From positions 1 to 64,000 of the forward strand of contig JANQHE010000076.1 in NCBI GenBank assembly GCA_028282785.1: DNA of 64,000 nt. Direction: 5' to 3'. Source of the stretch: Bacteroidales bacterium (GTDB taxonomy: Bacteria; Bacteroidota; Bacteroidia; Bacteroidales; UBA12077). Of the stretch, positions 11,803 through 49,232 are shown one piece after another. Under the pieces are notes generated by a model, which was not told where the DNA came from, did no database searches, and worked only from the letters and a program-made list of their open reading frames with translations. Position 1 is the stretch's first letter. Every line of letters starts with the position of its first letter. Made by a program: the position numbers and the translations under genes.

Positions 11803-11819
11803 TGTAAAACAAAATTCAT

Positions 11820-22720: not shown

Positions 22721-23415
22721 ATACTTACTCCACATAAAAAGATAGTAGCGCCTGCAATGGCATGCATAAACCTTTCAATATTTAATTTCGGAAGAAATTT
22801 AAATCCAAAATATGAACTTGTAACGACCAACATCATGGTTCCTACGGTAACAATGCTGAAAATTAGAGTAACCATTATCATTGCTAAAACATTGTTCTGA
22901 GCTGCAGGATATAATAGCATAGGTATAAATGGTTCACATGGTCCAAAAATAAATATTGTAAATAGTATCCAGGGCGTTAGTTCCTTTATGCTTTTCTTTT
23001 CGTGTATATGGGAGTGTTCTTTAAAATGAGAATGCTTATGAATATGCACAGTACCATCCTCATGTACGTGTTCATGTGTATGTTCTTTTTGCTTGTAGGC
23101 TCGTCTTAATCCCCAAATAAAATAAACCAGGCCAAATGCAATCATTAACCAGGCTGCAACTGATCCACGTGTAGCTTCAATAGGAGTTAGCTTGTTAACA
23201 GCTGTTCCAAGTAAAATTCCAATAAAACCTATAATAATTGAACTTGCTACATGTCCGATTCCACATATAAAAGTTATAAGATTTGTTTTCCAAAGAGGCC
23301 ATTTGCGAGCTCTGGACATTACGATAAATGGTAAATAATGATCAGGCCCCAAAAGAGTATGAAAAAAACCTATTGAGGCAGCTGTCAAGTATAGAGCACT
23401 TGATTCAATTTGCAT
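22702..23415 (-). CDS. NicO/UreH-type nickel transporter with His-rich loop
   Basis: 237 residues with about six membrane helices. Helix 1 carries HTLLGPDH, a metal-binding motif of the NicO/UreH/HupE group, and helix 2-3 contains CGIGHVASS. A central cytoplasmic loop (about residues 113-143) is rich in histidine (EHTHEHVHEDGTVHIHKHSH), as in nickel or cobalt carriers. It lies at the end of a minus-strand gene run that includes a [NiFe] hydrogenase protease, so nickel supply for the [NiFe] enzyme is the likely role. Cobalt or export function cannot be excluded. Confidence 0.78.
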   Translation of the reverse strand: MQIESSALYLTAASIGFFHTLLGPDHYLPFIVMSRARKWPLWKTNLITFICGIGHVASSIIIGFIGILLGTAVNKLTPIEATRGSVAAWLMIAFGLVYFIWGLRRAYKQKEHTHEHVHEDGTVHIHKHSHFKEHSHIHEKKSIKELTPWILFTIFIFGPCEPFIPMLLYPAAQNNVLAMIMVTLIFSIVTVGTMMLVVTSSYFGFKFLPKLNIERFMHAIAGATIFLCGVSIQFLGL

Positions 23416-23427: not shown

Positions 23428-23835
23428 TTAAAGATACTTTTTATCTTCTTCGGGCACATCAAAGTATTGTTTGTAGTGATTTGCATCAGGACCTATTTGC
23501 TCAATGCTTTTGTCACTGATTTTATATGTACATTTTTCTCCTGCTAAACTTGAGAAGTAAACTTCGAACTCTTCATCACCATCTTTAAGAAAGATCTTTA
23601 CAAGTTGTGGATTCTCTTCCCTGTTAAGTGTAGCATGACAAATAGGGCAGAAAAACGTATATTCCTGACCTTCGTGAACCTTGAAAGTAGGATGAGTAGT
23701 AATTGAGTAATCTCCGATTTCAGAGTTTAAAAAAATTAAACCCTTTTCGTTCTGTTCTGACTTTGCCGATAGCAAAATGGAGTTTTTAACCCTTAATTGA
23801 CCTTTGCAAATCGGACAGTAATAATCTTTTGCCAT
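23428..23835 (-). CDS. Putative zinc-ribbon protein linked to hydrogenase genes
   Basis: 135 residues with no recognised family. Two CPIC motifs (CPICKG near residue 7 and CPICHA near residue 63) could bind one zinc ion. The rest is a mixed alpha/beta soluble domain with FKVHEGQEYTFF and a C-terminal acidic tail. It sits 12 bases from the hydrogenase protease gene and 12 bases from the nickel transporter gene, so it is likely an accessory or redox-linked factor of the [NiFe] system (inference from position). Confidence 0.6.
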   Translation of the reverse strand: MAKDYYCPICKGQLRVKNSILLSAKSEQNEKGLIFLNSEIGDYSITTHPTFKVHEGQEYTFFCPICHATLNREENPQLVKIFLKDGDEEFEVYFSSLAGEKCTYKISDKSIEQIGPDANHYKQYFDVPEEDKKYL

Positions 23836-23847
23836 AGTATTTGGGTT

Positions 23848-24294
23848 TTAGTGGTTGATTTTATTTATTAATTTGTTTGCTGCTTTTAGCACAGTTTCAG
23901 AGATATTTTCCCCAAACTGAACATTTTCAGGTTGAATTCCTAATATATAAACAGGCATCTTAAATAACTCTGATATCCTCTTTAGCGAGATGTTATGTGT
24001 GTTCAGCGTAAAGTCCTTGACTTTTTCTGCAGGAAGAAGTTCAGCATATCCTGCTGATTTTCCATAATCTACACAATCAACAAGTATAAGAACATCAGGG
24101 TTTAAAGAGTTTATTTTGCCTATATAATTTTCGATGCTAACTTCAACTGTTAGTTTTTGTACATCGGAAGATTCTTTTAACTTATTACTTATATAAACTC
24201 CAACACCATCATCACTTTTTAGAACATTCCCAATCCCAACAAAGAGCTTTTTTTTATTGGTTTCTTTTATTATACTATCTAAGGTTTCGATCAC
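23848..24294 (-). CDS. hycI: [NiFe] hydrogenase maturation protease, HycI type
   Basis: 148 residues. The N-terminal motif FVGIGNVLKSDDGVG contains the conserved GxGNxLxxDDGxG pattern with the metal-sensing Asp, and VLILVDCVDYG and NTHNISLKRISE carry the other conserved Asp and His residues. These proteases cut the C-terminal tail of the [NiFe] large subunit after nickel insertion. The large subunit at 30811 has such a tail of 33 residues after its last CxxC motif. The gene overlaps the upstream ferredoxin gene by four bases. Confidence 0.88.
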   Translation of the reverse strand: MIETLDSIIKETNKKKLFVGIGNVLKSDDGVGVYISNKLKESSDVQKLTVEVSIENYIGKINSLNPDVLILVDCVDYGKSAGYAELLPAEKVKDFTLNTHNISLKRISELFKMPVYILGIQPENVQFGENISETVLKAANKLINKINH

Positions 24295-24905
24295 TCAAAG
24301 GTATATTTTATTAAAACTTCTCTTAAACAATTAGGACATAAGATATTGAACATATCTTTTCTTTTTAAACCATCTTTTATATCTGATTCTGCATTTTCCG
24401 TAGATGCTAATCGAAGTTTTTCATTAAGTACGTTCAAGTTTTGAATAGATGCAAATGATTTTGGTCCTAATTTCTTATGCATATATTGTAAATGATCTTT
24501 AGTTGTTATTATGGCACTGCAATTTTTACATATAATTAGTTCTCGTTCCTGGTATTCAACCGCCTGATTTCTATCAAAATTAGCAATGTCGAATATTTTA
24601 TCCGATAATATAACTCCTTTTTGAGTTATGCAATGTATCTGGCATTCGGCACAAAAAATGCATTTGCCATAATCTCTTTTAATGGTTCGAATTCTCTTTA
24701 CTTTATCGTCTTCAAAAGTAATGGCATGCGGAGGACAAACATTTGCGCAGGTTTCGCATCCTACGCAATTTTTTTCGTCAACTTCGGGTTTACCTCTATA
24801 GTTTTCGAAGGGAACATGAGGCTCCTTAGGAAACTTGGTTGTATACGCAGGTGTAAATAACGACACCAATGCTTCTTTTACTTCTCTTATTTTTGGATAC
24901 TTCAT
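24291..24905 (-). CDS. Group 4 hydrogenase ferredoxin subunit (NuoI/EchF/HycF-like) with C-terminal CxxC extension
   Basis: 204 residues. Two [4Fe-4S] motifs, CVGCETCANVCPP and CIFCAECQIHC, occupy about residues 45-95; the second lacks the usual proline after the last cysteine. A C-terminal extension of about 100 residues has CKNC and CPNC pairs, which suggests a zinc or rubredoxin-like site, similar to HycF-type proteins. The subunit would carry electrons to the small subunit at the membrane surface. It lies at the end of the Mrp block with 99 bases of intergenic hairpin before it. Confidence 0.82.
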   Translation of the reverse strand: MKYPKIREVKEALVSLFTPAYTTKFPKEPHVPFENYRGKPEVDEKNCVGCETCANVCPPHAITFEDDKVKRIRTIKRDYGKCIFCAECQIHCITQKGVILSDKIFDIANFDRNQAVEYQERELIICKNCSAIITTKDHLQYMHKKLGPKSFASIQNLNVLNEKLRLASTENAESDIKDGLKRKDMFNILCPNCLREVLIKYTFE

Positions 24906-24969
24906 TTTAGTTCCGGATTTAACTTATTTCATTCGTTCAGCTTGTAATACTCGGTTCAGATCTCAGATT

Positions 24970-25002
24970 ATCCGTCAAGCCGATTTAAACGGCTAGACGG
25001 AT
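24970..25002. repeat. Intercistronic hairpin between mrpG and the ferredoxin gene
   Basis: ATCCGTC-aa-GCCG pairs with CGGC-ta-GACGGAT around a 7-base loop. There is no T run on the minus strand, so it looks like an RNA-processing or stabilising hairpin rather than a terminator. Confidence 0.55.
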
Positions 25003-25004
25003 TA

Positions 25005-25331
25005 CTAACTTTTTGGAACATCTTTATAGTCGTCCTTAACGCTTTTATCTCCTAGTTTTACCCCGAAAATGTAGGCTCCTTTAACTAAAGCATGTGCAGC
25101 AACCGTAGCTGCGAAAAACAACAATGGAATAGCAATGATTGCTTTAAATCCTGCATCGTTAAAACCATAATAAAAAATTACTCCCGCCAAAATACTACAA
25201 GTACCTAAAGTAACACATTTAGTAGCCGATTGCAACCTGTTGTAAACATCCGGTAATCTGATTAAACCGATGCAGCCAAACAAGTTAAAAAGGATTCCGG
25301 TACATATAAATATAAAGCCTATAGTTTCCAT
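25005..25331 (-). CDS. mrpG: Mrp-type Na+/H+ antiporter subunit G
   Basis: 108 residues with three membrane helices and the MnhG/MrpG segments LIRLPDVYNRLQSATKCVTLGT and FKAIIAIPLLFFAATVAAHALVKGAY. It is a small subunit of the Mrp antiporter module that moves sodium and protons across the membrane. Its start overlaps the mrpF stop by one base. In group 4 hydrogenases of the Mbh type the same subunits couple H2 production to ion pumping. Confidence 0.92.
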   Translation of the reverse strand: METIGFIFICTGILFNLFGCIGLIRLPDVYNRLQSATKCVTLGTCSILAGVIFYYGFNDAGFKAIIAIPLLFFAATVAAHALVKGAYIFGVKLGDKSVKDDYKDVPKS

Positions 25332-25597
25332 TATTCGTTTAGTTTTTTACCACTTAAATATTTAGCCAGTGTTAAGGTTCCAATAAAGCTTAAAATAATC
25401 CATGCAATACCAATGTCGAGAATAAACTTTCGTTGGGTAGTAATGGATAAAATAGCGCATATTCCAACTACCAGGATTCCGAAAATATCGATGCCAACCA
25501 TTCTGTCGGCAATAGAAGGTCCTCGGATTATCCTGTAAAGGCAGAATATACATAATGCGATTTGCACATAAAGTAATATGTTCAGATAATCAATCAT
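25331..25597 (-). CDS. mrpF: Mrp-type antiporter subunit F
   Basis: 88 residues with three membrane helices and the MnhF/MrpF signature YRIIRGPSIADRMVGIDIFG. It overlaps the upstream mrpE gene by four bases. It is part of the ion-translocating module attached to the group 4 hydrogenase. Confidence 0.92.
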   Translation of the reverse strand: MIDYLNILLYVQIALCIFCLYRIIRGPSIADRMVGIDIFGILVVGICAILSITTQRKFILDIGIAWIILSFIGTLTLAKYLSGKKLNE

Positions 25598-26079
25598 TCG
25601 AATATTTTTTTAATGTATTTTTCAAATCTTCCTGAGATTCTTTGACTATATTCTTCTGGATTTTCTGAATAAACATATATCCAGTGTACATAAATTTCAT
25701 CACCAATGATATCTACAGAGATTGTTCCGGGTGTCATAGTAATTGAGTTTGCCAAAATGGTTTTTGCGATATTCGTTTTTAGTCCAAGTTTAACCTTTAC
25801 TATTCCCGGTTTAATAGGCATTGCAGGATGCAACACTCTATATGCTACATCAAAGTTTGCTTTAATACATTCCCAGGTAAAAATAAACAGGTACACAATT
25901 AACCAGAAATAACGCTGAGGTTGTAAAAATGGAATCACATCTTTTAGAAAATATCTGCCAAAAATGAAGGCAGTTATAATTGAAGCAACCACGCCAATTA
26001 TAATGTTTGATAAATCTAAACTAAATGTTAGAAACAACCAGAAAATGAAGGATAATATAAAAATTGCTATGTATTTCAT
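25594..26079 (-). CDS. mrpE: Mrp-type antiporter subunit E
   Basis: 161 residues with an N-terminal pair of hydrophobic helices and a cytoplasmic C-terminal domain holding the MnhE phrases VLHPAMPIKPGIVKVKLGLKT and ANSITMTPGTISVDI. It follows the mrpD stop by two bases and overlaps mrpF by four. The length is normal for the family. Confidence 0.92.
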   Translation of the reverse strand: MKYIAIFILSFIFWLFLTFSLDLSNIIIGVVASIITAFIFGRYFLKDVIPFLQPQRYFWLIVYLFIFTWECIKANFDVAYRVLHPAMPIKPGIVKVKLGLKTNIAKTILANSITMTPGTISVDIIGDEIYVHWIYVYSENPEEYSQRISGRFEKYIKKIFE

Positions 26080-26081
26080 AA

Positions 26082-27620
26082 TTAAATGCCTGTTATAGAT
26101 TTCACATATTGATCCGTATTTGTTAGGACCTCGATGGCAGGGCCCAGAATTTGTTCCCGGATTCCGGGAAATGCCAGAAGGCTAAACAATAGACACAAAA
26201 TTCCCATTAGTATCATGCTAAACACCATCGGAAATGGAACTTCTTTTAAAGTAGATTTGTTGCTGTGTTCTGTTTTGTTGAAAAATGCATACCTCTGAAA
26301 TTTCATGAATGAAGCAAGAGTTATGATACTTACAAAAACTGCTAAGAATGCAAGCAGATAAAATCTAGCCTGAATTGCTGCAATAATGATTATAAGCTTG
26401 CTAAAGAAACCATTGAATGGAGGAATTCCCGAAATAGCCATAGATGCAACAAAAGATGTTCCCGATGTAACAGGCATTTCCTTGCTTAGGCCACCCATTT
26501 CTTTCAGGTTTCTTGTATTAATTCGATGTTCAATTGCTCCTGCATTTAAAAATAGTAGGCCCTTAAAAACAGCATGATTAACCATGTGAAACAATCCTCC
26601 GGCAATGGCTAGTGCTGCTATAGATGGTTTTCCATCACGAGCAATAATTATTAATCCTATGCCTATACCTAGCACAACATAGCCCATCTGACTAATGCTG
26701 TGATAAGCCAGTAATCTTTTTATATCCCATTGCCCAATGGCTAAAAGAACTCCAATAACCATTGAAATGGTTCCTAAAGTAGTTAGTAGAATTGAAATTT
26801 CTTCTGAAGCAACAAACATATTAAAGAATAAACGTATGATCACATAAATTCCTGCTGCTTTAATTAAAACACCGGAAAGCATGGCTGAAATAGGCGATGG
26901 AGCAGAAGAGTGTGCATCTGGCAACCATGCATGGAATGGCATCATGGCTGCTTTTAAACCAAATCCGGTGATTAATAATATTTGTATGAATAAATCAAAT
27001 GTATTAGAATTACCGGAGCTAAGAAATATAGATGCATCAGCAATGTTTAAAGTTTTTGTTCTCCAATAAATCAATCCAATAGCAAAAAGTATTATAAATG
27101 AAGCTATACCTCCCAGTACCTGGTATTTAAATGACGCTTCAAGTTCTTCTTTTTGAGTGCCAAATGCAACTAATGCATATGATGATATTACTGATATTTC
27201 AAGAAATACAAAAAGGTTAAAAAGATCGCCACTCAACACAACACCATTCATACCGGTAATCATTAAACACAATAAAGAATAGAAGTTATTCTCCGATGTA
27301 AATTTTGAGATATAAGAAATGGAATATATAGAAGCTAAAAATCCTATTAAACTTATAATTGAAAGTAGAATTAAAGAAAAACCATCCATTACAAAATATA
27401 TTGCAATCGGTACATTTTCAATTGGCTCCCAACCTCCAATGGAATATACAAATGAATTTGAATTATTATTAATTAAGAAATAGAAACTTAGTATTGTTAA
27501 AAAAAGCAGAATTAACGGAGTTACAGTTTTTTGAAATCCATTTATTATTCTTCCCAAAATCATTATGAGAAAAGCTGTTGCTAATGGTACAATAACAAAT
27601 ATAGGTATCAACGAATTCAT
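26082..27620 (-). CDS. mrpD: Mrp-type antiporter subunit D (NuoN/M-like)
   Basis: 512 residues with about fourteen membrane helices of the proton-pumping NuoL/M/N family. The conserved transporter segment FHAWLPDAHSSAPSPISAML is clear, as is GGLFHMVNHAVFKGLLFL with its charged and histidine residues. It should form one ion path of the complex. It starts two bases after the mrpC stop, in tight operon spacing. Confidence 0.92.
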   Translation of the reverse strand: MNSLIPIFVIVPLATAFLIMILGRIINGFQKTVTPLILLFLTILSFYFLINNNSNSFVYSIGGWEPIENVPIAIYFVMDGFSLILLSIISLIGFLASIYSISYISKFTSENNFYSLLCLMITGMNGVVLSGDLFNLFVFLEISVISSYALVAFGTQKEELEASFKYQVLGGIASFIILFAIGLIYWRTKTLNIADASIFLSSGNSNTFDLFIQILLITGFGLKAAMMPFHAWLPDAHSSAPSPISAMLSGVLIKAAGIYVIIRLFFNMFVASEEISILLTTLGTISMVIGVLLAIGQWDIKRLLAYHSISQMGYVVLGIGIGLIIIARDGKPSIAALAIAGGLFHMVNHAVFKGLLFLNAGAIEHRINTRNLKEMGGLSKEMPVTSGTSFVASMAISGIPPFNGFFSKLIIIIAAIQARFYLLAFLAVFVSIITLASFMKFQRYAFFNKTEHSNKSTLKEVPFPMVFSMILMGILCLLFSLLAFPGIREQILGPAIEVLTNTDQYVKSITGI

Positions 27621-27622
27621 TT

Positions 27623-27961
27623 TTATCCTCTTAAATTATTTATTTCTCTGATATCAAATGTTTTATATTTTCTGTAAAGCCTTATAGCTATTGCCAATAA
27701 CATAGCTGTTGTTGCTAAACCGATTACAATAGCTGTTAATACCATCGCCTGGGGTAATGGATCAACATATTTTTCTGTGGGGTTACCAGGATCAACGATA
27801 GGTGCCACACCTGAATCGATATAACCAATTAAAACAAGGAATAAGAATACGCTAAATTCCATTATTGATAATGAAATAACAATCTTTATAAGATTTCGAC
27901 GGGTTATAATTCCATATAATCCTACCAGAAATAATATAAAACAAAGAATATATACAATCAT
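27623..27961 (-). CDS. mrpC: Mrp-type antiporter subunit C (NuoK-like)
   Basis: 112 residues with three membrane helices, including GLYGIITRRNLIKIVISLSIMEFSVFLFL and the PQAMVLTAIVIGLATTAMLLAIAIRLY segment typical of MnhC/NuoK, with its buried glutamate. It overlaps mrpB by four bases. Confidence 0.92.
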   Translation of the reverse strand: MIVYILCFILFLVGLYGIITRRNLIKIVISLSIMEFSVFLFLVLIGYIDSGVAPIVDPGNPTEKYVDPLPQAMVLTAIVIGLATTAMLLAIAIRLYRKYKTFDIREINNLRG

Positions 27962-28395
27962 CTTTTTGTTTCCTCTTTAAAAATAATTAATGCTAAAAAT
28001 ATTGTAATAATAGCTGCAGCTACTTCAATTCCAATGAATATGTTATATAATGGAATAACACCTGCACTTATAATTTCTCCTAGCTGACCTTTTGGTAAAT
28101 AGTTTGATAAAAATACTCTAGAGCCTATAAATAGGGCAAAAATTGCAAGCATAAGTACAATGAATATTGCAAGGCTTTCGGATAAAGATGAACCTTTTTC
28201 TTTATTCCTAAGGTTTACTGCATCTGAGCCAAATGCAAGTATATTTAAGATATAGGCTCCTGCAATTATAGCACCCCCGGCAAAACCTCCTCCGGGAGTT
28301 AAATGTCCATGTATTATGATATAAATTCCATAAAGGAAAATAAATCCGGAAATTAATTGAGCAATTTTTTTTACTATGATTGACATGCCTTTCAT
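27958..28395 (-). CDS. mrpB: Mrp-type antiporter subunit B
   Basis: 145 residues with four membrane helices and the MnhB signature HGHLTPGGGFAGGAIIAGAYIL near residue 30. It is the membrane partner between the fused MbhD-E-like gene (4 bases upstream) and mrpC. Confidence 0.92.
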   Translation of the reverse strand: MKGMSIIVKKIAQLISGFIFLYGIYIIIHGHLTPGGGFAGGAIIAGAYILNILAFGSDAVNLRNKEKGSSLSESLAIFIVLMLAIFALFIGSRVFLSNYLPKGQLGEIISAGVIPLYNIFIGIEVAAAIITIFLALIIFKEETKR

Positions 28396-28399
28396 ATGC

Positions 28400-28927
28400 T
28401 TATTTTTTGCTTTTAATTCTTAAAACTGTTAGAACACCCAATGCAGCAGCAAACAGAATCGTTGCTTCACCCAGAGTATCATATCCTCTGAAATCAAATA
28501 AAACACCAGTTACTAAATTTATACTTCCTGTTTTTTCAGTTGCTTCGGTTATATATGCCTCAGACATTCTTAAGGTATGCTCTCCAAATAGATTAAGTCC
28601 GGATATTGATTCTAAAAAGAAAAACAATAGAACTGCGCTAAAAATTAGGGATAGTAAGATATTGGCATATGATTTAAAATCATTTTTAACTTTTAATTCT
28701 TCTCGCGTACTATCCAATACAACTGCTACCATTATAATTAGTGTAATAGTTTCAATAACTATTTGTACAATTGCAAGATCAGGAGCTTTTAGTAAAAGAA
28801 AAGCTATAACCAGGCTATATCCTACAATACCGGTTGTAATAACAGCAGAAAGCAGATCGCCGGCATGGATAGCAAATAGTGCCCCAACGATCATAAATCC
28901 GATTAATATAGAAAGCGTTAATTCCAT
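28400..28927 (-). CDS. MbhD-MbhE-like fused subunit (C-terminal MrpA region)
   Basis: 175 residues from ATG 28927; the longer frame would run 46 bases into the previous gene. The first half matches the DUF4040/MbhD region (DLLSAVITTGIVGYSLVIAFLLL...APDLAIVQIVIET), and the last part matches MbhE (FDFRGYDTLGEATILFAAALGVL). In Mbh complexes these are two separate small membrane proteins, and in MrpA they form the C terminus of one large protein. Here they are one gene, separate from the NuoL-like gene that ends 11 bases upstream. Confidence 0.85.
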   Translation of the reverse strand: MELTLSILIGFMIVGALFAIHAGDLLSAVITTGIVGYSLVIAFLLLKAPDLAIVQIVIETITLIIMVAVVLDSTREELKVKNDFKSYANILLSLIFSAVLLFFFLESISGLNLFGEHTLRMSEAYITEATEKTGSINLVTGVLFDFRGYDTLGEATILFAAALGVLTVLRIKSKK

Positions 28928-28938
28928 TGTTTCACTTT

Positions 28939-30801
28939 TTAAATCATAATTAATAACATTATTATCAGGCCGGCAAAAATCCAAATAGTGTAATTGCTTA
29001 AAATGCCATTGTGGGCATTGCTGAACGAATGACTACACCATAGTACAAATCGTTTTGTTAAATCATAAATATCAAACCATTTCTCTTCGGCTTTTTTGTA
29101 TATATCATTCAATAGCTTAAAGTCAGATATGGTTTTATAAAATTCAACTGCATTGTAATTTCCTTTTTCTATCATTTTTTCGCCACCTCCAACAAAACTA
29201 TCTGCAGTTCGGTAATTTTTTATATTTCCAATAAAATAGATAATTAGTCCAAGAATTATGGAAACCAGTATTAGTAAGGATACCATTTCTGACTGCCAAA
29301 TTCCCACAAAACTGAAATTACCTGCTATAGGATAAAACAGCTTTGGAACTATATAACCAGATGCAAAAACACCAAATCCTACACAGAATAATGCAAGAAT
29401 AACAAGAGGTAACCACATTAAAACAGATACTTCTTTAATAGCTTTAAATTCCTCTTTCTTACGTCCTAAGAATATGCCGCCTATAAATTTTATAAAACTG
29501 GCAAGAGTAAGTGCCGAACCTAAAACTGCTAGTGCTAACCAAACAATCCATAAGTTATTGGCAATTCCGGAACCTGCACCAAAATCAATTATTCCTTGGT
29601 ATATCATCCATTTAGATGCAAATCCATTTAAGGGTGGTATTCCCGAAATTGATAGCGCAAACACCAGTGCCGCTATAAATGTTATTGGCATTACTTTAGA
29701 TAATCCACCTACTTCTTCTATATTGTTTTTACCTGTTCGGTGTTCAACACATCCTGCAGATAGAAGCAATCCGCTTTTATAAAGTGCATGATTTACCATG
29801 TGAAATAATCCCGCTGCGATACCTAGCATGGTTCCTAATCCAAAACCAACAACCATATAACCAACTTGAGATACAGCATGAAAGCCAAGTAGTTTTTTAT
29901 AATCGTGTTGTACAAGTGCCATAAGCACAGCAGTAATAATTGTTATTACTCCTAAGGATAAAATAACTACTCGTAACCAATCATTAAGAACAAATAAATT
30001 GTTACAGATTCTTGCAAGAAAATATATTCCCAGTAATTTGTCTAATGATGCCGGTAAAAATGCAGATGAAGAAGCCGGGGCATTTTTAGTGTAGTCAGGT
30101 ATCCATGAATGAAACGGAAATGCACCTGCTTTTGTAAATGCACCAATAAGCAAAGTAAAAAAAGCTAATATTGTAAGTGCATTATTTGTATCTACATTTA
30201 TATCGCTCATGTTTAAAGTGCCGGTAATTTTCCATAAAATGGCAATACCCAGAATCATTATTCCATCCGAAGCTCCAACAATAATCAGAGTTTTTTTCGC
30301 TGCAGCAGAGCTTTCGTCATTATGCGCCTTTATCAGTTTGTATAGTGTTAACCCGAGAATTCCCCAGAATATTAAAAACAGGAGTAAATTGTCAGAAGCT
30401 ACTGCTCCAAAAGAACACCCCAGGGTTAATAAGAAATATTCATAATAATTATTGATTTTCTTTTCTTTTGATATATATACAATAGAATAAAGTAGAATTA
30501 AAAATGCAAAGATTGCTACGAATAATAATATGAGTTGGTTTAGCGAGTCAATATTAAATGCAGAGTATTTAATTAAATCAAAATTTATTGATCTCAAAAA
30601 TTCTGAATTTAATCGATCTAATGCTGTATAAGGTGTAAAAGCAAATTGCTTTCCGGTAAAGATTAAAACAGAATAAACTAAGCACAAAATAGAAGTAAAT
30701 ATTGCCAGAATCCCCTTTAAAATGTTGAATTTTCCTGGAATAAGAAATAAGGCTGACCCAATTATTACAGGAATTATAATGATGTATAAAAGTTCATTCA
30801 T
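28939..30801 (-). CDS. NuoL/MrpA-like ion-translocating membrane subunit
   Basis: 620 residues with about sixteen hydrophobic helices. The conserved segments FHSWIPDYTKNAPASSSAFL and GLFHMVNHALYKSGLLLSAG carry the family's charged residues for ion movement. The C terminus has a cytoplasmic stretch and a last helix (YTIWIFAGLIIMLLIMI), similar to the lateral-helix region of large antiporter subunits. It starts 9 bases after the hydrogenase large subunit, so it physically follows the catalytic genes and joins them to the Mrp set. Confidence 0.9.
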   Translation of the reverse strand: MNELLYIIIIPVIIGSALFLIPGKFNILKGILAIFTSILCLVYSVLIFTGKQFAFTPYTALDRLNSEFLRSINFDLIKYSAFNIDSLNQLILLFVAIFAFLILLYSIVYISKEKKINNYYEYFLLTLGCSFGAVASDNLLLFLIFWGILGLTLYKLIKAHNDESSAAAKKTLIIVGASDGIMILGIAILWKITGTLNMSDINVDTNNALTILAFFTLLIGAFTKAGAFPFHSWIPDYTKNAPASSSAFLPASLDKLLGIYFLARICNNLFVLNDWLRVVILSLGVITIITAVLMALVQHDYKKLLGFHAVSQVGYMVVGFGLGTMLGIAAGLFHMVNHALYKSGLLLSAGCVEHRTGKNNIEEVGGLSKVMPITFIAALVFALSISGIPPLNGFASKWMIYQGIIDFGAGSGIANNLWIVWLALAVLGSALTLASFIKFIGGIFLGRKKEEFKAIKEVSVLMWLPLVILALFCVGFGVFASGYIVPKLFYPIAGNFSFVGIWQSEMVSLLILVSIILGLIIYFIGNIKNYRTADSFVGGGEKMIEKGNYNAVEFYKTISDFKLLNDIYKKAEEKWFDIYDLTKRFVLWCSHSFSNAHNGILSNYTIWIFAGLIIMLLIMI

Positions 30802-30810
30802 TTTAATAGA

Positions 30811-32001
30811 CTATTTGTTTCTAATATCGCTTGTTTTTTTCGCTGATAAAGCTATGAGTTCATTTCCATTTAGGATTCTTTCGCCTGTTTTCCAGTCATA
30901 TGCTACGGCCATTCTCTCGGTACAGCAATAGCATGGATCAACAGCAGCTAAAGAAATCGTTGCGTCTGAAATGGTTTGACCCACGCACGATTTCTTAAAT
31001 GTTGCAATATTGGTATAACTGGGAGCACGAATTTTATGCCTTGCAGGCGAATTAGAACCATCGGTTAAAACATAATGGAATACTTCTCCACGTGGTGCTT
31101 CTGCATGGCCAGTCCCCCAACCGGCAGCAACATGTTTCACTTTTACTTCCGTATCGCCTTCTTTTTCTTTTTTCAACCCTTCAAGGCATTGTTCTATGAT
31201 TGAGATTGACTCGTACATTTCTAACAAACGTACTTCTGCTTTAGCAAATACATCGCCTTTTTCGGCTGTAATTACTTTCCAGTTTACTAATGGATATGCT
31301 GCATAAGGATCATCTCTACGAACATCAATATCAACACCGGATGCTCTTGCTGTTGGCCCTACAGCTGCATAATCAATAATATCTTGTTTAGTTAAAGTTC
31401 CAACTCCTTTTAGGCGTGCATGAAGAACGGGGTCGTCCATAACGGCTCCAACCAACATATCGGTTTTCTTCTTCACCATGTCGAGTATTTTGGTTATTTT
31501 AGGGATCATAATGTTTTCTATATCCCTGCGAACTCCTCCAATCTTAAACATGGCATAGCTATTTCTATTACCAGTTATCATTTCAAATAGATCAAGAACC
31601 GGCTCGCGGTATTTCCAGGCCCACATAAATACGGTATTATAACCTAAGAAATGGCCGGCAAGCCCTACCCAAAGGAGATGGCTGTGAACGCGTTCAAGCT
31701 CGCCAATTATGGATCGAATATATTTTGCACGATTTGTAATTTCAATATTTCCGGCTTCTTCTAGTGCGTTTGCTAATGCAAATGGGTGAGATGTAGAGCA
31801 AATTCCACATATTCTTTCAACAAGGAAGAAAGATTGATCGAAAGTTTTCTTTTCACTCAATTGTTCAATACCACGGTGGTTATAACCTGTTTCCCACTTA
31901 ATATCCTTAACAATTTCACCTTCGCAATACAGTTTAAACAGTTCAGGTTCTTCCTGAAGCGGATGATAAGGACCAATTGGTATAAGTGTTTTTTTAGCCA
32001 T
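30811..32001 (-). CDS. Group 4 [NiFe] hydrogenase large (catalytic) subunit
   Basis: 396 residues. The N-terminal nickel site is RICGIC (Cys65, Cys68) and the C-terminal site is DPCYCCTER (Cys357, Cys360), so all four Ni-Fe ligands are present. This separates it from the cysteine-less NuoD of complex I. The last 33 residues after the CTER motif should be cut by the HycI protease at 23848. Length and motifs fit EchE/MbhL-type group 4 enzymes. It makes or uses H2 at the cytoplasmic membrane face. Downstream the NuoL-like gene starts after 9 bases; upstream is a 140-base gap with a tandem repeat. Confidence 0.93.
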   Translation of the reverse strand: MAKKTLIPIGPYHPLQEEPELFKLYCEGEIVKDIKWETGYNHRGIEQLSEKKTFDQSFFLVERICGICSTSHPFALANALEEAGNIEITNRAKYIRSIIGELERVHSHLLWVGLAGHFLGYNTVFMWAWKYREPVLDLFEMITGNRNSYAMFKIGGVRRDIENIMIPKITKILDMVKKKTDMLVGAVMDDPVLHARLKGVGTLTKQDIIDYAAVGPTARASGVDIDVRRDDPYAAYPLVNWKVITAEKGDVFAKAEVRLLEMYESISIIEQCLEGLKKEKEGDTEVKVKHVAAGWGTGHAEAPRGEVFHYVLTDGSNSPARHKIRAPSYTNIATFKKSCVGQTISDATISLAAVDPCYCCTERMAVAYDWKTGERILNGNELIALSAKKTSDIRNK

Positions 32002-32095
32002 TTTAGAATTATGTATCTTTTATTTTTCTTTTTTAATATCGAATAGTGAATGACTATTTTTAATTTTTTATTCTTTTTAATTCAATATTCGGTGT

Positions 32096-32125
32096 TCATT
32101 ATTCATTATTCATTATTCATTATTC
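32096..32125. repeat. Short tandem repeat ATTCATT
   Basis: Four tandem copies of a 7-base unit (TTCATTA in phase) lie in the 140-base gap between the NuoC-like gene and the large-subunit gene. Such runs can change copy number by slippage. There is no promoter evidence. Confidence 0.75.
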
Positions 32126-32141
32126 TTTTACATATCACTTA

Positions 32142-32579
32142 TTACTTAAATTCACGCCTATAAGGATAAACTCCTTCGGCCCAGTTTCCTTCTGAAATTA
32201 ACTTTTCGGGTTCAGGATGATTTTTAAATACAATGCCATATAATTCGTGCATCTCACGTTCAATCCAATTACTTGCCGAAAACATATTTGATAATGATTC
32301 GATTTCAGGTTTATTAACCGGAAGAATTACATGTAAATTGGCAATTAGTCCAATATTGTCTTTACTAAAATGGTAAAGAATTTCAAATCCCTTTTTTGTG
32401 TGATTAGCTGTTGCAATAATAAACCTGCATTCTAAATCCTTATATGCATACTCGGCAACCTGTAAAAGAGATTCCGGTTTTATTGTAACGGTAACCCTTG
32501 TTTCCGATTTCTTGAATACATCAATTACATCGGAACTAAACTTATCTTTTATATTTTTTAAGATCTCATTGGTATTCAT
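32142..32579 (-). CDS. NuoC-like subunit of group 4 hydrogenase (EchD/MbhK type)
   Basis: 145 residues matching the 30-kDa NuoC family: the conserved segment NWIEREMHELYGIVFKNHP is near residues 105-125 and the C terminus reads YPYRREFK. It is a structural subunit beside the large and small hydrogenase subunits. It is 12 bases downstream of the small-subunit gene. Confidence 0.88.
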   Translation of the reverse strand: MNTNEILKNIKDKFSSDVIDVFKKSETRVTVTIKPESLLQVAEYAYKDLECRFIIATANHTKKGFEILYHFSKDNIGLIANLHVILPVNKPEIESLSNMFSASNWIEREMHELYGIVFKNHPEPEKLISEGNWAEGVYPYRREFK

Positions 32580-32591
32580 AATAGAATCTCT

Positions 32592-33002
32592 TTACTTATT
32601 TAAAAGTTTAACAACTCCTGCTAAAATGGCTTCGGGTTTAGGAGGACATCCCGGAATATAAGCATCGACCGGTATTATTTTATCAACCGGGCCTGCAAAG
32701 GTATTTCCTTCGGCAAATATCCCTCCTGTACAACCGCATGCCCCAATAGCTACTACCAAAATAGGTTTGGGTGCTTGTTCATATATTTCTAATAACCTGC
32801 TTTTATCTTTTTTATTAATTGAACCATTTACAAGTAAAACATCGGCATGGCGGACACTACCAACGAGTAACATTCCAAATCGTTCAACATCAAATCGTGG
32901 TGTTAAACAATCGAGAATTTCAATGTCGCAATTATTACATGATGCTCCTCCGAAATGGAACAACCACAAAGACTTTTTAAAACAGAATTCTTTAAATCCC
33001 AC
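32592..33002 (-). CDS. Group 4 [NiFe] hydrogenase small subunit (NuoB/EchC-like)
   Basis: 136 residues from GTG 33002, which is 11 bases after the stop of the NuoH-like gene and gives the usual EchC-like start MGFKEFCFKKSLW; an ATG at 33068 would overlap that gene by 55 bases. The proximal [4Fe-4S] ligands are visible: CNNCDIE (Cys22, Cys25), GACGCTGG (Cys89) and PGCPPKPE (Cys119). It passes electrons from ferredoxin-like subunits to the Ni-Fe site. Confidence 0.9.
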   Translation of the reverse strand: MGFKEFCFKKSLWLFHFGGASCNNCDIEILDCLTPRFDVERFGMLLVGSVRHADVLLVNGSINKKDKSRLLEIYEQAPKPILVVAIGACGCTGGIFAEGNTFAGPVDKIIPVDAYIPGCPPKPEAILAGVVKLLNK

Positions 33003-33013
33003 AGTTTTAATTT

Positions 33014-33946
33014 TTATAATCCAAAATATGATAGCACAATTGCAATAATGGCCAAAAGGTTCATCCAAACCAGGAAATACCTAATAGCTTGTTTGATTTT
33101 TACTCTTGGATTAGTATTTCTGATCAGAGTAAGCAACAGTACCACAAATAATATTTTTAATATTGACCAGAGAATATTGATTCCTTCAAAGTTTAATCCT
33201 TTCCAAAGCAATCCAATTAAAAATGCCGGAAGGATAAAAAACATGATATATTTAGCCAGTTTAATCATGGCGTAAGGCGTTCCTGAATATTCAATCATAA
33301 TACCGTCTGCAATTTCGGTTTCTGCTTCGGGAGCGTCGAAAGGAACAAGAGCTAACTTTGCCTGGATACAGAAAACAAATACTATGAACAATATTACTCC
33401 AGAGATGCTTCCTGCAAATGCGCCGTTTAACGATTGAATAGAAATGATTTCACTAAAACTGATCGTCATTCCTGCCTTTTGTATAATTCCTGCCAGAACC
33501 AGTAAGAAAGTAAGTTCATAGCTTAAAATCAATTTCATTTCCCTTGACCCACCAATAGCAGCTAAAGGGTTGCCCGAAGCTAGTGCCCCAATTATATAGG
33601 TTAATGATGGTATGGTTAATAAATAGAAAATTACTATAATATCACCTTTAAACCCGGTTTCTATTCCTAGTAATGGCAGTAAAATAAAAACTCCTGCTAT
33701 GGCGGCTCCAAAAACTGCAAATATTGGAGCTGAAAGAAATACACCTTTCGAGCCGTGTTTAGGTAAAATAGTTTCTTTTACTAATAATAATTTAAAGAAA
33801 TCATAAAACGGCTGAAGCACTGGAGGCCCTTTTCTAAATTGAACCCAGGCGGTTACTTTTCTATCATACCATGATAATAAAGCTCCTATAACTGCTGCAA
33901 AAAGCAGTCCCGGATATATTAAAAAATAAAATAGTTGTTCTGCCAT
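33014..33946 (-). CDS. NuoH/EchB/MbhM-like membrane anchor subunit
   Basis: 310 residues with about eight helices. Typical NuoH segments are present: WYDRKVTAWVQFRKGPPVLQP near the N terminus, and a loop with PFDAPEAETEIADGIMIEYSG near residue 200 that carries the acidic residues linked to ion coupling. It anchors the peripheral hydrogenase arm and connects it to the antiporter subunits. It follows the ferredoxin gene by 7 bases. Confidence 0.92.
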   Translation of the reverse strand: MAEQLFYFLIYPGLLFAAVIGALLSWYDRKVTAWVQFRKGPPVLQPFYDFFKLLLVKETILPKHGSKGVFLSAPIFAVFGAAIAGVFILLPLLGIETGFKGDIIVIFYLLTIPSLTYIIGALASGNPLAAIGGSREMKLILSYELTFLLVLAGIIQKAGMTISFSEIISIQSLNGAFAGSISGVILFIVFVFCIQAKLALVPFDAPEAETEIADGIMIEYSGTPYAMIKLAKYIMFFILPAFLIGLLWKGLNFEGINILWSILKILFVVLLLTLIRNTNPRVKIKQAIRYFLVWMNLLAIIAIVLSYFGL

Positions 33947-33953
33947 AATAAAA

Positions 33954-34451
33954 TTACTGTTTATCAGTATTCCAAATATTTTCTTTAACTAAAATTTGAT
34001 CATTTAATTTGTAAATGTTTTGTTCCGGATTTTCATCCATATCAACCAGTTCAACTGAACCAACCGGGCAAGCTTTAATAAATTCTCTTAATTCATGTTC
34101 ATCAGACAAATCAAAAAATAGATCTTTCTTTCGGTGATGATCAAAGAAATCACTCATCATGGTTCCGAATGGACAAATAGCAACACAAGATTTGCATGAA
34201 ATGCATAAATTGGTATATCTTTCGATCATACCATTGTCATCTTTTTCCAATGCTTCTGCCGGACATACGGTGATACAAGGAGCATCCTCACATTTACGGC
34301 AAGTAAACTGAAATACAGCCAACTCCCGAATTGATTTTAAGCCAGTAGTACCTGTTAAATGACTAAAAAATCCTTCAGGCGGTGTTTCATCACAACTCTG
34401 ATTACCACACTCACGGAATTTGCTTAGGTTTATTAATAGTTTTTTGTCCAT
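33954..34451 (-). CDS. HydN/HycB-like polyferredoxin
   Basis: 165 residues with cysteine groups CRKCEDAPCITVCP and CISCKSCVAICP in the centre, plus RECGNQSC near the N terminus and a later KACPVGS. This is the HycB/HydN pattern for two to four [4Fe-4S] clusters. It lies between the AsrB-like flavoprotein gene (3 bases) and the NuoH-like gene (7 bases), so it probably carries electrons from the AsrA/AsrB module to the membrane hydrogenase (inference). Confidence 0.85.
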   Translation of the reverse strand: MDKKLLINLSKFRECGNQSCDETPPEGFFSHLTGTTGLKSIRELAVFQFTCRKCEDAPCITVCPAEALEKDDNGMIERYTNLCISCKSCVAICPFGTMMSDFFDHHRKKDLFFDLSDEHELREFIKACPVGSVELVDMDENPEQNIYKLNDQILVKENIWNTDKQ

Positions 34452-34454
34452 ATC

Positions 34455-35279
34455 TTAACTCCAGATATCTGGTTGATCTTTAATTTCATCATATGTAAAT
34501 ACAGGGCCTTCCTTACAAACAAAATATTTACCCATCATACAGTGCCCGCATTTCCCAAGGCCACATGACATGTTCTTCTCCATTGATAAGTAAATACCGT
34601 TTTCAGGATACCCCATTTCCAGAAATTTCATTGTTCCGAATTTCATCATGATCGGAGGGCCGCAACAAACTGCAACCGAGTTTTTAATATCAACCTTAAC
34701 CTGATCTAGCAATACAGTTGCAACACCCACAGATTCGGACCAGGATTCATTTGGTTCATCTACAGTTCTTAAGACTTCGAATTTCGGTGTATTTCTAAGT
34801 TCATCAACATAAGGTTTGTAAATACACTCATCGGGAGTTTTAGAACCATAACATAAAGTAACTTTCCTTAATTTATCAGAAATGGCTGCCAAATTGTATA
34901 GTAAAGACCTGATAGGGGCAAAGCCACAACCTCCACCAAGAATGAGTACTTCTTTATCGTAGAATTTTTCAACCGGATAACCACGCCCAAATGGTCCTCT
35001 AATACCAAGAGTTTCACCAGGTTTCATATTGTGTAAATATTCGGTAACATAACCGGTTTTCATCACAGTAACCTCAATTTTCTTGGTTTCAAGGGGAGAA
35101 GAAGAAGGTGTAAAAGGTGCTTCTCCTATACCATCAACAGTAAGTTCAATAAATTCGCCGGTTTTAAAAGAAAAATCTTCTTCAGGTTCCATTATAAATG
35201 TCTTGATTGTTGGTGATTCGGAAATAACATCCAACAATTTAGCCCTTATAGGTTTGTATATGTTCTTTGTTTCAGCCAT
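34455..35279 (-). CDS. AsrB/HydG-like FAD-NAD(P) oxidoreductase subunit
   Basis: 274 residues. An FAD-binding barrel is followed by RGPFGRGYP, then the NAD(P)-binding segment LILGGGCGFAPIRSLLYNLA, and a C-terminal [2Fe-2S] site CGLGKCGHC plus a later cysteine (KYFVCKEGP). This is the ferredoxin-NADP reductase-like fold of anaerobic sulfite reductase subunit B and of the sulfhydrogenase gamma subunit. It should exchange electrons with NAD(P)H. It is cotranscribed with an AsrA-like gene and the group 4 hydrogenase. Confidence 0.88.
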   Translation of the reverse strand: MAETKNIYKPIRAKLLDVISESPTIKTFIMEPEEDFSFKTGEFIELTVDGIGEAPFTPSSSPLETKKIEVTVMKTGYVTEYLHNMKPGETLGIRGPFGRGYPVEKFYDKEVLILGGGCGFAPIRSLLYNLAAISDKLRKVTLCYGSKTPDECIYKPYVDELRNTPKFEVLRTVDEPNESWSESVGVATVLLDQVKVDIKNSVAVCCGPPIMMKFGTMKFLEMGYPENGIYLSMEKNMSCGLGKCGHCMMGKYFVCKEGPVFTYDEIKDQPDIWS

Positions 35280-35280
35280 T

Positions 35281-36276
35281 TTAAGCTAATTCTCTGAATA
35301 ATTCGTTTTTATTTATTTTTCCAATACATGCTTCGATACATCTTCCGCAACCTGTGCAAACCAGAGATTTAAATTTTTGTGGTTTCCAAACATATTTGCA
35401 GAAGTATCTGTTTTTAAATCTTTTTGGAAGTTCCCCCAATGCATCTTCTCCGCCGGCAACTCTTTCAAAACCAGGATATTGACAAGCGTCTAATTGGCGT
35501 ACTTTCTCGAAATTTGGTTTGTCGATTAACAAGAAACATGTGCATGTAGGACAAATTGTCGCGCAAGCACCGCATGAAACGCAGTTAGAAGAATATTTGA
35601 TCCAGGTTTTGTTATCGGCCTGATCAACTATTTTTCCAGTTTTTTTATAATCTGGTAAGCCTGTATTATTTGCGATTATTTCGTTCTCAATTTTATGTTG
35701 CTTTAATTCAATATCTTTAACTTCTGATTCCGTAGAATTTGAAATATTTGCAATATTTTGTAATTCGCTGATGAGTTTTTCTCCTTTCTCAGATAATATT
35801 TCTAAATGGATTTTTTTATCCATTTGTGCCAGAGAAATATCAGCATTTTCTTTAGAGAATGGCTTAACTCCATATGTCATGCAATGACAATGCTCTAAGG
35901 TTTCAAAACAAGAAGATGAAATTAAAATGGTATTTTCTCTTCGTGCCTGATATGCATAATCAATGTAGTCTTTATCCAAGTATATTTCATCCAGGATATT
36001 TAATCCATGAATATCGCAATTAGGTGTTCCAATAATTATTCTTTTACTATCGGGCGTTTCTGATGTTAAGTTTTCTTTGATTGGTAAAAAGAAAGTTTTT
36101 AAAGGCGTAGTTGGTTTTGGAACATTATAAATGATTTCCTGAATATTTTCATTTTGAATGAGTTCGTAATCTATGGATTCACCTGTTTTTAATGGAGCAT
36201 AAATTAAATAATCTCCAAATAGCTGTTCTAATGCGCTATTCCAGTCTGAATTTAATAATGAATAATAATTTTTCAT
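35281..36276 (-). CDS. AsrA/HydB-like Fe-S subunit (sulfhydrogenase beta type)
   Basis: 331 residues from ATG 36276; a GTG at 36294 is in frame, but it lies inside the Rex-type operator and close to the predicted transcript start. The C-terminal half has two [4Fe-4S] motifs (CVSCGACATICPTCTC and CTGCGRCIEAC) as in AsrA and the sulfhydrogenase beta subunit. The N-terminal half has IIGTPNCDIHGLNILDEIY, typical of that family. With AsrB it forms a diaphorase-like NAD(P)H module. It is the first gene of the long minus-strand hydrogenase operon. Confidence 0.86.
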   Translation of the reverse strand: MKNYYSLLNSDWNSALEQLFGDYLIYAPLKTGESIDYELIQNENIQEIIYNVPKPTTPLKTFFLPIKENLTSETPDSKRIIIGTPNCDIHGLNILDEIYLDKDYIDYAYQARRENTILISSSCFETLEHCHCMTYGVKPFSKENADISLAQMDKKIHLEILSEKGEKLISELQNIANISNSTESEVKDIELKQHKIENEIIANNTGLPDYKKTGKIVDQADNKTWIKYSSNCVSCGACATICPTCTCFLLIDKPNFEKVRQLDACQYPGFERVAGGEDALGELPKRFKNRYFCKYVWKPQKFKSLVCTGCGRCIEACIGKINKNELFRELA

Positions 36277-36279: not shown

Positions 36280-36295
36280 TGTGACATCGTTCACA
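36280..36295. promoter_or_regulatory. Rex-type operator before the [NiFe] operon (TGTGA-N6-TCACA)
   Basis: TGTGACATCGTTCACA is a perfect TGTGA-N6-TCACA repeat, the core of the known Rex consensus TTGTGA-N6-TCACAA (also similar to a CRP site). It lies 3 bases before ATG 36276 and at the predicted transcript start of the minus-strand operon, where a bound repressor would block it. Confidence 0.75.
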
Positions 36296-47404: not shown

Positions 47405-47423
47405 AAAATTGGAGGATATAAAA

Positions 47424-49217: not shown

Positions 49218-49232
49218 TAAATTATTAGAACG

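What the first reader, a model, noticed from the sequence alone, without database searches (positions are those of the whole stretch)
23428..36276. Group 4 [NiFe] hydrogenase joined to a full Mrp antiporter set and to an AsrA/AsrB NAD(P)H module
Seen: one tightly spaced minus-strand run encodes AsrA-like and AsrB-like proteins, a HydN-like ferredoxin, NuoH/B/C/D-like hydrogenase subunits with all four Ni-Fe cysteines, a NuoL-like pump, an MbhD-E fusion, MrpB-G, an EchF-like ferredoxin, a HycI protease and a zinc-ribbon protein. Known: Mbh-type enzymes take electrons from ferredoxin and pump ions; AsrB and sulfhydrogenase gamma subunits use NAD(P)H. Inference: this may be an ion-pumping hydrogenase that can also use NAD(P)H, by ion-driven electron flow or by joint use of ferredoxin and NADH. 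That combination would be a new complex architecture.
Basis: partly seen in the sequence, partly recalled or inferred. Interest (0 to 1): 0.8.

Follow-up and report, generated by a model that had tools for sequence, protein, structure and literature searches.

The report
Ion-pumping hydrogenase with NAD(P)H arm
This bacterium carries an operon for a membrane hydrogenase that sits on a sodium/proton pump and also has its own NAD(P)H-handling arm; the same set is kept together in bacteria of several phyla and is probably switched on when NADH piles up, which would give a poorly understood class of hydrogenases a testable job.

Summary
In detail: an 18-gene operon (AsrA/AsrB-like, HycB-like ferredoxin, NuoH/B/C/D, NuoL-like, MbhDE, MrpB-G, HycF-like ferredoxin, HycI, Zn-ribbon) opposite rex and hyp genes. 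AsrA+AsrB sit beside the hydrogenase in 58 of 59 related loci with room (the exception has scaffold joins) and in 18 of 18 readable loci of the same class in one phylum, but in 0 of 19 loci of other classes there. No AsrC passes its cut-off in this genome; none was found in 50 related genomes. Found here: (1) Rex-type palindromes at the rex/asrA divergence, 2 of only 5 in the genome, and upstream of asrA in 38 of 79 loci (controls 0 of 79); (2) Gly at the TM5 Glu position of the NuoL-like pump (87 of 95 ORFs), Glu kept in MrpD-like ORFs (77 of 77); (3) an adaptor probably derived from a four-cluster, HycB-type protein. Best reading: a Rex-controlled, ion-coupled hydrogenase with NAD(P)H, probably NADH, as an electron port. 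Assembly, cofactor and direction are inferred. The gene combination was reported for one Saganbacteria genome in 2019, without a NAD(P)H mechanism in the passages read. New variant of a known kind.

The parts
35281..36276 (-). AsrA / sulfhydrogenase-beta-like Fe-S protein (start at 36276 preferred; mechanical ORF to 36294)
   Evidence: best solved relative sulfhydrogenase 1 beta 9nez_B; 15 of its 16 Cys are kept in 56 or 57 of 57 rows, C299 in 51
34455..35279 (-). AsrB / sulfhydrogenase-gamma-like FAD, NAD(P) and [2Fe-2S] protein
   Evidence: sulfhydrogenase 1 gamma 9nez_C; C239, C244, C247, C255 kept in 67, 68, 68 and 68 of 68 rows
33954..34451 (-). HydN/HycB-like adaptor ferredoxin, two [4Fe-4S] motifs here
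   Evidence: eight Cys in 74 of 74 rows; outer Cys motifs of a four-cluster protein in 21 of 26 loci outside the Bacteroidota and Cloacimonadota sets
33014..33946 (-). NuoH / HycD / MbhM-like membrane subunit
   Evidence: PF00146
32592..33068 (-). NuoB / MbhJ-like small subunit (true start probably inside)
   Evidence: PF01058; C44, C47, C111, C141 in 68 of 68 rows
32142..32579 (-). NuoC / MbhK-like subunit
   Evidence: PF00329
30811..32001 (-). [NiFe] large subunit
   Evidence: PF00346 and PF00374; 6cfw_L, membrane-bound hydrogenase alpha, best solved match; the genome's only PF00374 match at E 0.001
28939..30801 (-). NuoL/HycC-like antiporter subunit; TM5 Glu position is Gly147
   Evidence: Gly in 67 of 70 aligned rows and in 87 of 95 clade ORFs
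28400..28984 (-). MbhD-MbhE fusion
   Evidence: PF13244 and PF20501
27958..28395 (-). MrpB
   Evidence: PF04039
27623..27961 (-). MrpC
   Evidence: PF00420
26082..27620 (-). MrpD (canonical Glu141 and Lys223)
   Evidence: PF00361; Glu in 77 of 77 MrpD-like clade ORFs
25594..26079 (-). MrpE
   Evidence: PF01899
25331..25597 (-). MrpF
   Evidence: PF04066
25005..25331 (-). MrpG
   Evidence: PF03334
24291..24905 (-). HycF-like 2x[4Fe-4S] ferredoxin subunit with extra CxxC...CxxC site
   Evidence: FHL subunit 6, 7z0s_F, best; the eight cluster Cys in 54 of 54 rows
23848..24294 (-). HycI-type hydrogenase maturation protease
   Evidence: PF01750
23428..23835 (-). Zn-ribbon-like protein, function unknown
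   Evidence: weak partial matches only; found by tblastn in 25 of 48 loci with room
22702..23415 (-). NicO/DsbD-like membrane protein with His-rich loop, perhaps a nickel transporter
   Evidence: PF13386 above cut-off, PF03824 below cut-off
36280..36295 (.). Rex-type operator TGTGACATCGTTCACA upstream of asrA
36466..36481 (.). Rex-type operator TGTGAAACAAGTCACA at the rex start
36467..37099 (+). Rex, NADH/NAD+-sensing repressor, divergent
   Evidence: PF02629 and PF06971; the name Rex is inferred from these domains
37154..39382 (+). HypF
39384..39599 (+). HypC-like
   Evidence: ORF, by its MCLSIPGK start (recalled motif), no domain search
39700..40785 (+). HypD
   Evidence: PF01924
40688..41788 (+). 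HypE (AIRS domains; mechanical start, true start probably inside)
41829..42173 (+). HypA-like
   Evidence: ORF, by inspection, no domain search
42285..42953 (+). HypB (CobW/HypB/UreG domain)

Best explanation
The operon encodes one membrane complex: a group 4 [NiFe] hydrogenase on an Mrp-type ion-translocating arm, with an AsrA-AsrB diaphorase as a built-in NAD(P)H port. Proposed path: NAD(P)H, FAD and [2Fe-2S] in AsrB, Fe-S clusters in AsrA, HycB-like adaptor (33954-34451), HycF-like ferredoxin (24291-24905), NuoB cluster, Ni-Fe site, with H+ reduced to H2. Rex represses the operon and is released by NADH, so the complex is made when NADH piles up and works as a hydrogen-venting valve. Because NADH to H2 is close to or above thermodynamic break-even, turnover is probably either helped by the ion gradient or coupled loosely. 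One canonical pump (MrpD) and one antiporter-like subunit without its TM5 Glu fit low coupling. Shown: gene content, co-occurrence, ligand residues, operator sequences, residue change. Inferred: physical assembly, electron path, Rex binding, NADH over NADPH, direction, coupling. Ferredoxin may still enter at the HycF-like subunit.
For: Gene order kept in 58 of 59 loci with room, and AsrAB in 18 of 18 readable loci of this class in the phylum of L114's genome, against 0 of 19 of other classes. AsrA, AsrB and HydN distances correlate with NuoD (r 0.92, 0.91, 0.89) as those of other subunits do (0.81-0.91; 32 shared taxa). Cofactor-ligand Cys are conserved along the whole path. AsrA/AsrB match sulfhydrogenase 1 beta/gamma; HydN matches HycB-type and Fd matches HycF. 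AsrC: none over cut-off in the own genome, none in the genomes of 50 of the 80 loci. Rex-type sites: 2 of the genome's 5 exact sites flank this divergence; 38 of 79 asrA upstream regions, three permuted palindromes 0 of 79 each; 53 of all 57 sites in 1.62 Mb of loci lie in those regions. Only [NiFe] hydrogenase in the genome by PF00374, with a hyp set behind rex. TM5: Gly in 87 of 95 clade NuoL-like ORFs, Glu in 17 of 17 of the 43-47% class. AsrB NAD loop YG[SA][KR]TPx[DE] in most rows resembles NqrF, named an NADH enzyme (YGARS).
Against: Rex also controls a ferredoxin-dependent membrane hydrogenase in C. bescii (PMC6391272, passages), so Rex control does not prove NADH is the donor. TGTGA-N6-TCACA is also the recalled CRP-type palindrome, and one of the genome's five sites lies next to a gene that looks Crp/Fnr-like by inspection. 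41 of 79 asrA upstream regions lack an exact site, among them G267's (L032) and all 3 Cloacimonadota examined. The distance correlation has no unlinked control. No multimer model was made; the adaptor model gave only weak core matches (TM about 0.3). The NAD-loop comparison is weak, and the 3b and Ilyobacter references have similar loops. Gly147 may be compensated elsewhere; loci L091, L102, L105 and L113 carry Glu or Asp, and L091 and L105 have a third pump.
Confidence: 0.55

Rival explanations
1. An ordinary ferredoxin-driven, ion-pumping Mbh-type hydrogenase. AsrAB and the adaptor are co-expressed but form a separate soluble NAD(P)H oxidoreductase, for example passing electrons to or from ferredoxin or sulfur.
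For: HydDB lists 4g as putative ferredoxin-coupled (PMC5037454 passages). The HycF-like subunit is where ferredoxin could dock. Rex control of a ferredoxin-dependent hydrogenase is reported.
Against: AsrAB stays beside this class of hydrogenase in all but one of the loci with room, and that one has scaffold joins; 1-7 nt spacing; a HycB-type adaptor sits between module and core, as in formate hydrogenlyase.
Confidence: 0.2
2. The complex runs mainly the other way: H2 oxidation reduces NAD(P)+, exporting ions, or importing them to help; an H2-uptake enzyme.
For: [NiFe] hydrogenases are reversible; group 3b relatives of AsrAB work both ways (recalled).
Against: Rex releases its targets at high NADH/NAD+ (passages), when more NADH is not needed.
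Confidence: 0.12
3. Confurcation: reduced ferredoxin (at the HycF-like subunit) and NADH (at AsrB) are oxidised together to H2, as by HydABC, with residual energy conserved by Mrp.
For: No call tested it positively.
Against: AsrB matches single-FAD reductases of the sulfhydrogenase gamma and dihydroorotate dehydrogenase electron-transfer type; no second flavin domain was found in the operon; the contig already has [FeFe] HydABC-like sets.
Confidence: 0.08
4. A ferredoxin:NAD(P)+ oxidoreductase pump (Mbx/Rnf-like) in which the Ni-Fe site is only a vent.
For: Two antiporter-like subunits, as in the 6u8y complex (MBS, name recalled); NAD(P)H module present.
Against: Intact Ni-Fe ligands in 81 of 81, HycI protease and hyp set; an RnfC is already present.
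Confidence: 0.05

Closest known systems
Saganbacteria RX5A group 4 [NiFe] cluster (PMC6349859, 2019)
   Same: Group 4 hydrogenase with Mrp-like subunits, asrA, asrB and a cooF-like gene; nearest relatives in Zixibacteria and Omnitrophica (passages)
   Different: It also has a molybdopterin oxidoreductase; in the passages read the authors proposed an oxidoreductase module and an Mbh-like role. No Rex sites, distribution or residue analysis in what I read; the supplementary note was not readable. Its sequences were not compared here
HydDB group 4g [NiFe] hydrogenases
   Same: Published 4g assignments exist in Cloacimonadota, Omnitrophota and Endomicrobium (passages), groups in which this cluster was found
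   Different: 4g is described as putative ferredoxin-coupled of undetermined role; HydDB itself could not be run
P. furiosus MBH (6cfw) and MBS (6u8y; name recalled)
   Same: 6cfw_L is the best solved match of the large subunit; Mrp subunits; the NuoL-like C-terminus aligns to 6u8y_X
   Different: Added AsrAB and HycB-type adaptor; TM5 Glu of the NuoL-like subunit replaced by Gly
E. coli formate hydrogenlyase (7z0s)
   Same: HycF- and HycB-like subunits between an input module and the hydrogenase
   Different: AsrAB instead of FdhF; full Mrp set; FHL keeps TM5 Glu but lacks the TM7 Lys, the reverse of this NuoL-like subunit
Group 3b sulfhydrogenase, AsrABC sulfite reductase, FlxABCD-HdrABC
   Same: Use the same kind of beta/gamma (AsrA/AsrB) NAD(P)H module (the Flx label for Ilyobacter is mine)
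   Different: Other catalytic partners; Mbh-linked AsrB (18 of 68 rows used) is a separate group from 6 references in a 24-row tree (98/98)

Membership tests
Group 4 membrane [NiFe] hydrogenase | Both CxxC Ni-Fe motifs in a NuoD-type large subunit | tested here: met
   81 of 81 rows
Group 4 membrane [NiFe] hydrogenase | NuoH, NuoB and antiporter-like membrane subunits in the operon | tested here: met
HydDB group 4g | Large subunit classed 4g by HydDB | not testable with these tools
   HydDB not available; inferred from published 4g assignments in groups that carry it
Mbh group 4d | Ferredoxin as sole donor, no NAD(P)H module in the operon | tested here: not met
   AsrAB present
AsrABC anaerobic sulfite reductase | AsrC catalytic subunit | tested here: not met
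   own genome: 12 matches, none over cut-off, best 41 of 324 bits; 0 of 50 related genomes at E 1e-20
AsrABC anaerobic sulfite reductase | AsrA/AsrB above curated cut-offs | tested here: not met
   131 of 323 and 199 of 289 bits
Group 3b sulfhydrogenase | 3b-type alpha and delta subunits | tested here: not met
   large subunit nearest NuoD models and MbhL; sulfhydrogenase alpha 26-36 bits against cut-offs 700-880
Formate hydrogenlyase (4a) | FdhF in the operon | tested here: not met
   no FdhF among the operon's genes; an FdhF-like ORF stands upstream in L092
Rex regulon | Rex-type palindrome upstream of the operon, rex gene beside it | tested here: met
Rex regulon | Rex binds and represses in vivo | not testable with these tools
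   needs EMSA or expression data

The most novel reading that the evidence does not exclude
A widespread class of membrane hydrogenases, probably part of HydDB 4g and now filed as ferredoxin-coupled, is an ion-gradient-coupled NADH:H+ oxidoreductase. It makes H2 from NADH with help from, or loose coupling to, the sodium/proton gradient. Its electron input is modular, with NADH throughout and formate added in some lineages, and it is under Rex control.
Probability: 0.42. Interest if true: 0.8.

Novelty: new variant of a known kind. Interest (0 to 1): 0.6.

Why it matters
HydDB lists group 4g as of undetermined role. If the NAD(P)H port is real, these enzymes link the NADH pool directly to H2 and the ion gradient, a connection usually drawn through Rnf plus a separate hydrogenase. 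That would change energy budgets for many uncultured bacteria (Bacteroidales, Cloacimonadota, Omnitrophota, Elusimicrobia) and could explain H2 release from NADH in sediments and digesters. The operators and conserved residues give direct tests.

Tried and rejected
Sulfite reductase partner: rejected, no AsrC found. Contig L071 as a natural AsrAB loss: rejected, N-run scaffold joins at 7927-8026 and 13515-13614. L148 as a loss: rejected, its first 4701 bases read N. The first Rex scan, with a loose score on the Rex-AsrA gap, was weak for the window (0.285 of shuffles as good); it stopped at the ORF borders, and scanning over the start codons found the exact sites. My control was not the plainly reversed pattern but each half read backwards; one search added the whole reversed and the swapped pattern, also 0 of 79. 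Nine MrpD rows with Gly at TM5 look like NuoL ORFs picked in truncated loci; the ORF-based recount gave 77 of 77 Glu, which includes the extra pumps of L104 and L147. AsrA tree: Mbh rows needed 2 changes, apparently because of one Ilyobacter row with a branch of 5.0 that may not be AsrA. Ilyobacter's ferredoxin next to its AsrB is no clear homologue of the adaptor (E 0.019). Promoter/terminator scan: no excess over shuffles (66 against 66.6; 6 against 7.4), not used. Fold search of the adaptor: weak, generic ferredoxin-core matches. TIGR02910 search in the phylum of G324 covered only 6 genomes (0 of 6 over cut-off) and was used to notice second AsrA genes. Papers: ten text searches brought up one paper in which I saw the combination (PMC6349859); PMC11247091 also held 'hydrogenase', 'Mrp' and 'asrAB' once each and was not opened.


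Full report
Observation. A NicO/DsbD-like membrane protein follows. On the plus strand, from 36467, lie rex, hypF, a hypC-like gene, hypD, hypE, a hypA-like gene and hypB. The contig belongs to a 5.5 Mb, 81-contig genome. Its nearest relatives by large subunit (up to 92% identity) are MAGs titled Bacteroidales. It has one PF00374 match, no second NuoD-type protein at E 1e-20, an RnfC, and a second, separate pair of Mrp-type pumps on contig 36.

Distribution. In 296 genomes of the same phylum, the window's own included, G267 was the only other one with a close large subunit (58%; the other listed matches were 36% or lower), and it has the same operon order. Of 59 loci with at least 4.7 kb upstream of the large subunit, 58 have AsrA, AsrB and HydN in order. 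The exception, L071, has scaffold N runs. Of 48 loci with at least 8.5 kb downstream, 47 have MrpB, MrpC, MrpE, MrpF, MrpG and Fd, 41 have HycI and 25 the Zn-ribbon gene. These 80 are the nearest relatives, so the sample is biased. I therefore searched 145 genomes of the phylum of L114's genome, titled Omnitrophica, and fetched 20 of the 30 full-length hits at 59-66% identity, 14 of 18 at 43-47%, and 5 at 37-40%. AsrA and AsrB are present in 18 of 20 of the first class; the other two are a contig end (L146) and a masked stretch (L148). They are absent from the fetched 11-17 kb of all 19 others. AsrAB is thus a feature of this hydrogenase clade.

The NAD(P)H module. AsrA and AsrB match sulfhydrogenase 1 beta and gamma among solved structures (9nez; organism P. 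furiosus recalled) and miss the AsrA/AsrB and sulfhydrogenase curated cut-offs. In a 24-row tree (18 of 68 rows plus six references from plasmid records) the Mbh-linked AsrB rows form one side of a branch (98/98); AsrA does not do so cleanly. AsrC was not found: 12 matches in the own genome, none over cut-off (best 41 bits of 324), and none at E 1e-20 in 50 related genomes, drafts of untold completeness. The same kind of module serves AsrABC, group 3b enzymes and, in Ilyobacter, an HdrA-linked cluster that I would compare with FlxABCD-HdrABC (that paper seen only as a reference entry). The AsrB NAD loop is mostly YG[SA][KR]TPx[DE], closer to NqrF than to the sulfhydrogenase gamma (alignments). 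This is suggestive only.

Path of electrons. Cofactor-ligand cysteines are kept along the proposed path: AsrB 67-68 of 68, AsrA 56-57 of 57 for 15 of 16 Cys, adaptor 74 of 74, HycF-like 54 of 54, NuoB 68 of 68, NuoD 81 of 81. The adaptor matches HycB-type proteins, mostly over a 50-100 residue ferredoxin core, and the terminal ferredoxin matches HycF best. In the E. coli FHL structure these two carry electrons from FdhF to the hydrogenase (PMC9474812 passages). Outer Cys motifs of a four-cluster adaptor are kept in 21 of 26 loci outside the Bacteroidota and Cloacimonadota sets (the 26 include L032, which is of the window's phylum), against 2 of 43 and 0 of 5, so the window's lineage has probably lost two clusters. 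The AlphaFold model of the adaptor (pLDDT 83) gave only weak core matches.

Ion arm. The arm has two antiporter-like subunits: MrpD and a NuoL-like one whose C-terminus aligns to 6u8y_X (MbsH' of MBS, name recalled). At the TM5 position that is Glu in the five solved relatives shown and called strictly conserved in PMC9474812, the NuoL-like subunit has Gly in 87 of 95 clade ORFs. The 43-47% class without AsrAB has Glu in 17 of 17, MrpD-like clade ORFs have Glu in 77 of 77, and the genome's separate Mrp has Glu. Non-Gly cases are 5 Glu, 1 Asp, 1 Ala and 1 Val. L091 and L105, which hold Glu or Asp cases, carry a third pump, and so do L104 and L147. I read this as reduced or altered pumping by that subunit; it is an inference.

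Regulation. TGTGA-N6-TCACA sites lie at 36280-36295 and 36466-36481. The shorter GTGA-N6-TCAC occurs only at these two places in the window; 0.36 are expected and 4 of 100 shuffles reach two. The full palindrome occurs five times in the whole genome (control pattern once). Across loci, 38 of 79 asrA upstream regions have an exact site; three permuted palindromes give 0 of 79 each; 53 of the 57 sites in 1.62 Mb of loci lie in those regions. By group: 23 of 38 Bacteroidota-titled regions, 5 of 18 of L138-157, 10 of 23 others including both Clostridia-titled loci L092 and L093; none of the 3 Cloacimonadota nor L032. Rex itself is divergent in the Bacteroidota-titled loci where it was found and co-directional in L092, L093, L095, L105, L147, L149, L151 and L154. 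The published Rex consensus is TTGTGAA-N4-TTCACAA, and a candidate site in Caldithrix has the same core (PMC5317091, PMC6391272 passages). Cautions: the recalled CRP palindrome has the same core, one of the other three genomic sites lies at a Crp/Fnr-like gene (by inspection), and Rex also controls a ferredoxin-dependent membrane hydrogenase.

Mechanism. NADH (about -320 mV) to H2 (-414 mV standard; recalled values) is uphill at high H2 and near balance at low H2, so a complex that pumps outward on NADH alone is unlikely to pay. I therefore favour NADH disposal with gradient help or loose coupling, induced by Rex. Ferredoxin entry at the HycF-like subunit stays possible. In L092 a formate-dehydrogenase-like gene with its own AsrA-like partner stands upstream (by inspection), which fits a modular input.

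Known or new. PMC6349859 reports the same gene combination in one Saganbacteria genome and suggests an Mbh-like role (passages). PMC8542988 and PMC11257099 report 4g enzymes in groups that carry this cluster, the former linked to Mrp; the term 'sulfite reductase' is absent from both main texts. HydDB calls 4g putative and undetermined. I met no report of the distribution, operators, TM5 change or adaptor history in the ten searches, which did not aim at each point; subscription papers, supplements and preprints were not seen.

Noticed in passing
window 1205-4740, 43926-45278, 47003-51532; L033 2227-8768: Several [FeFe]-hydrogenase genes (PF02906 in three window ORFs; L033 by inspection) and HydABC-like sets lie on the same contig, with a second Rex-like gene at L033 12471-13097; an H2-centred region.
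   Followed up: partly
L092 576-3691: FdhF-like formate dehydrogenase with its own AsrA-like partner, then MobA- and FdhD-like genes (by inspection), upstream of rex and the AsrAB-hydrogenase operon: a possible second electron input.
   Followed up: partly
L104 11178-12569; also L091, L105, L147: Some members carry a third antiporter-like gene; in L104 it stands between the large subunit and the NuoL-like gene and has the TM5 Glu. Pump number varies within the clade.
   Followed up: partly
window 5153-14888: NrfD-like membrane protein and ferredoxin subunit, with cytochrome-like genes and a large cytochrome-maturation-like protein by inspection: a respiratory-looking cluster in a genome without a second NuoD.
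   Followed up: no
window 23428-23835: Zn-ribbon protein of unknown role after the HycI protease, found in 25 of 48 loci with room, all 25 on contigs titled Bacteroidales or Bacteroidetes.
   Followed up: no
L181 (Ilyobacter plasmid) 1-6680: AsrA/AsrB-like pair beside HdrA-family and hydrogenase iron-sulfur subunit genes, resembling FlxABCD-HdrABC.
   Followed up: partly
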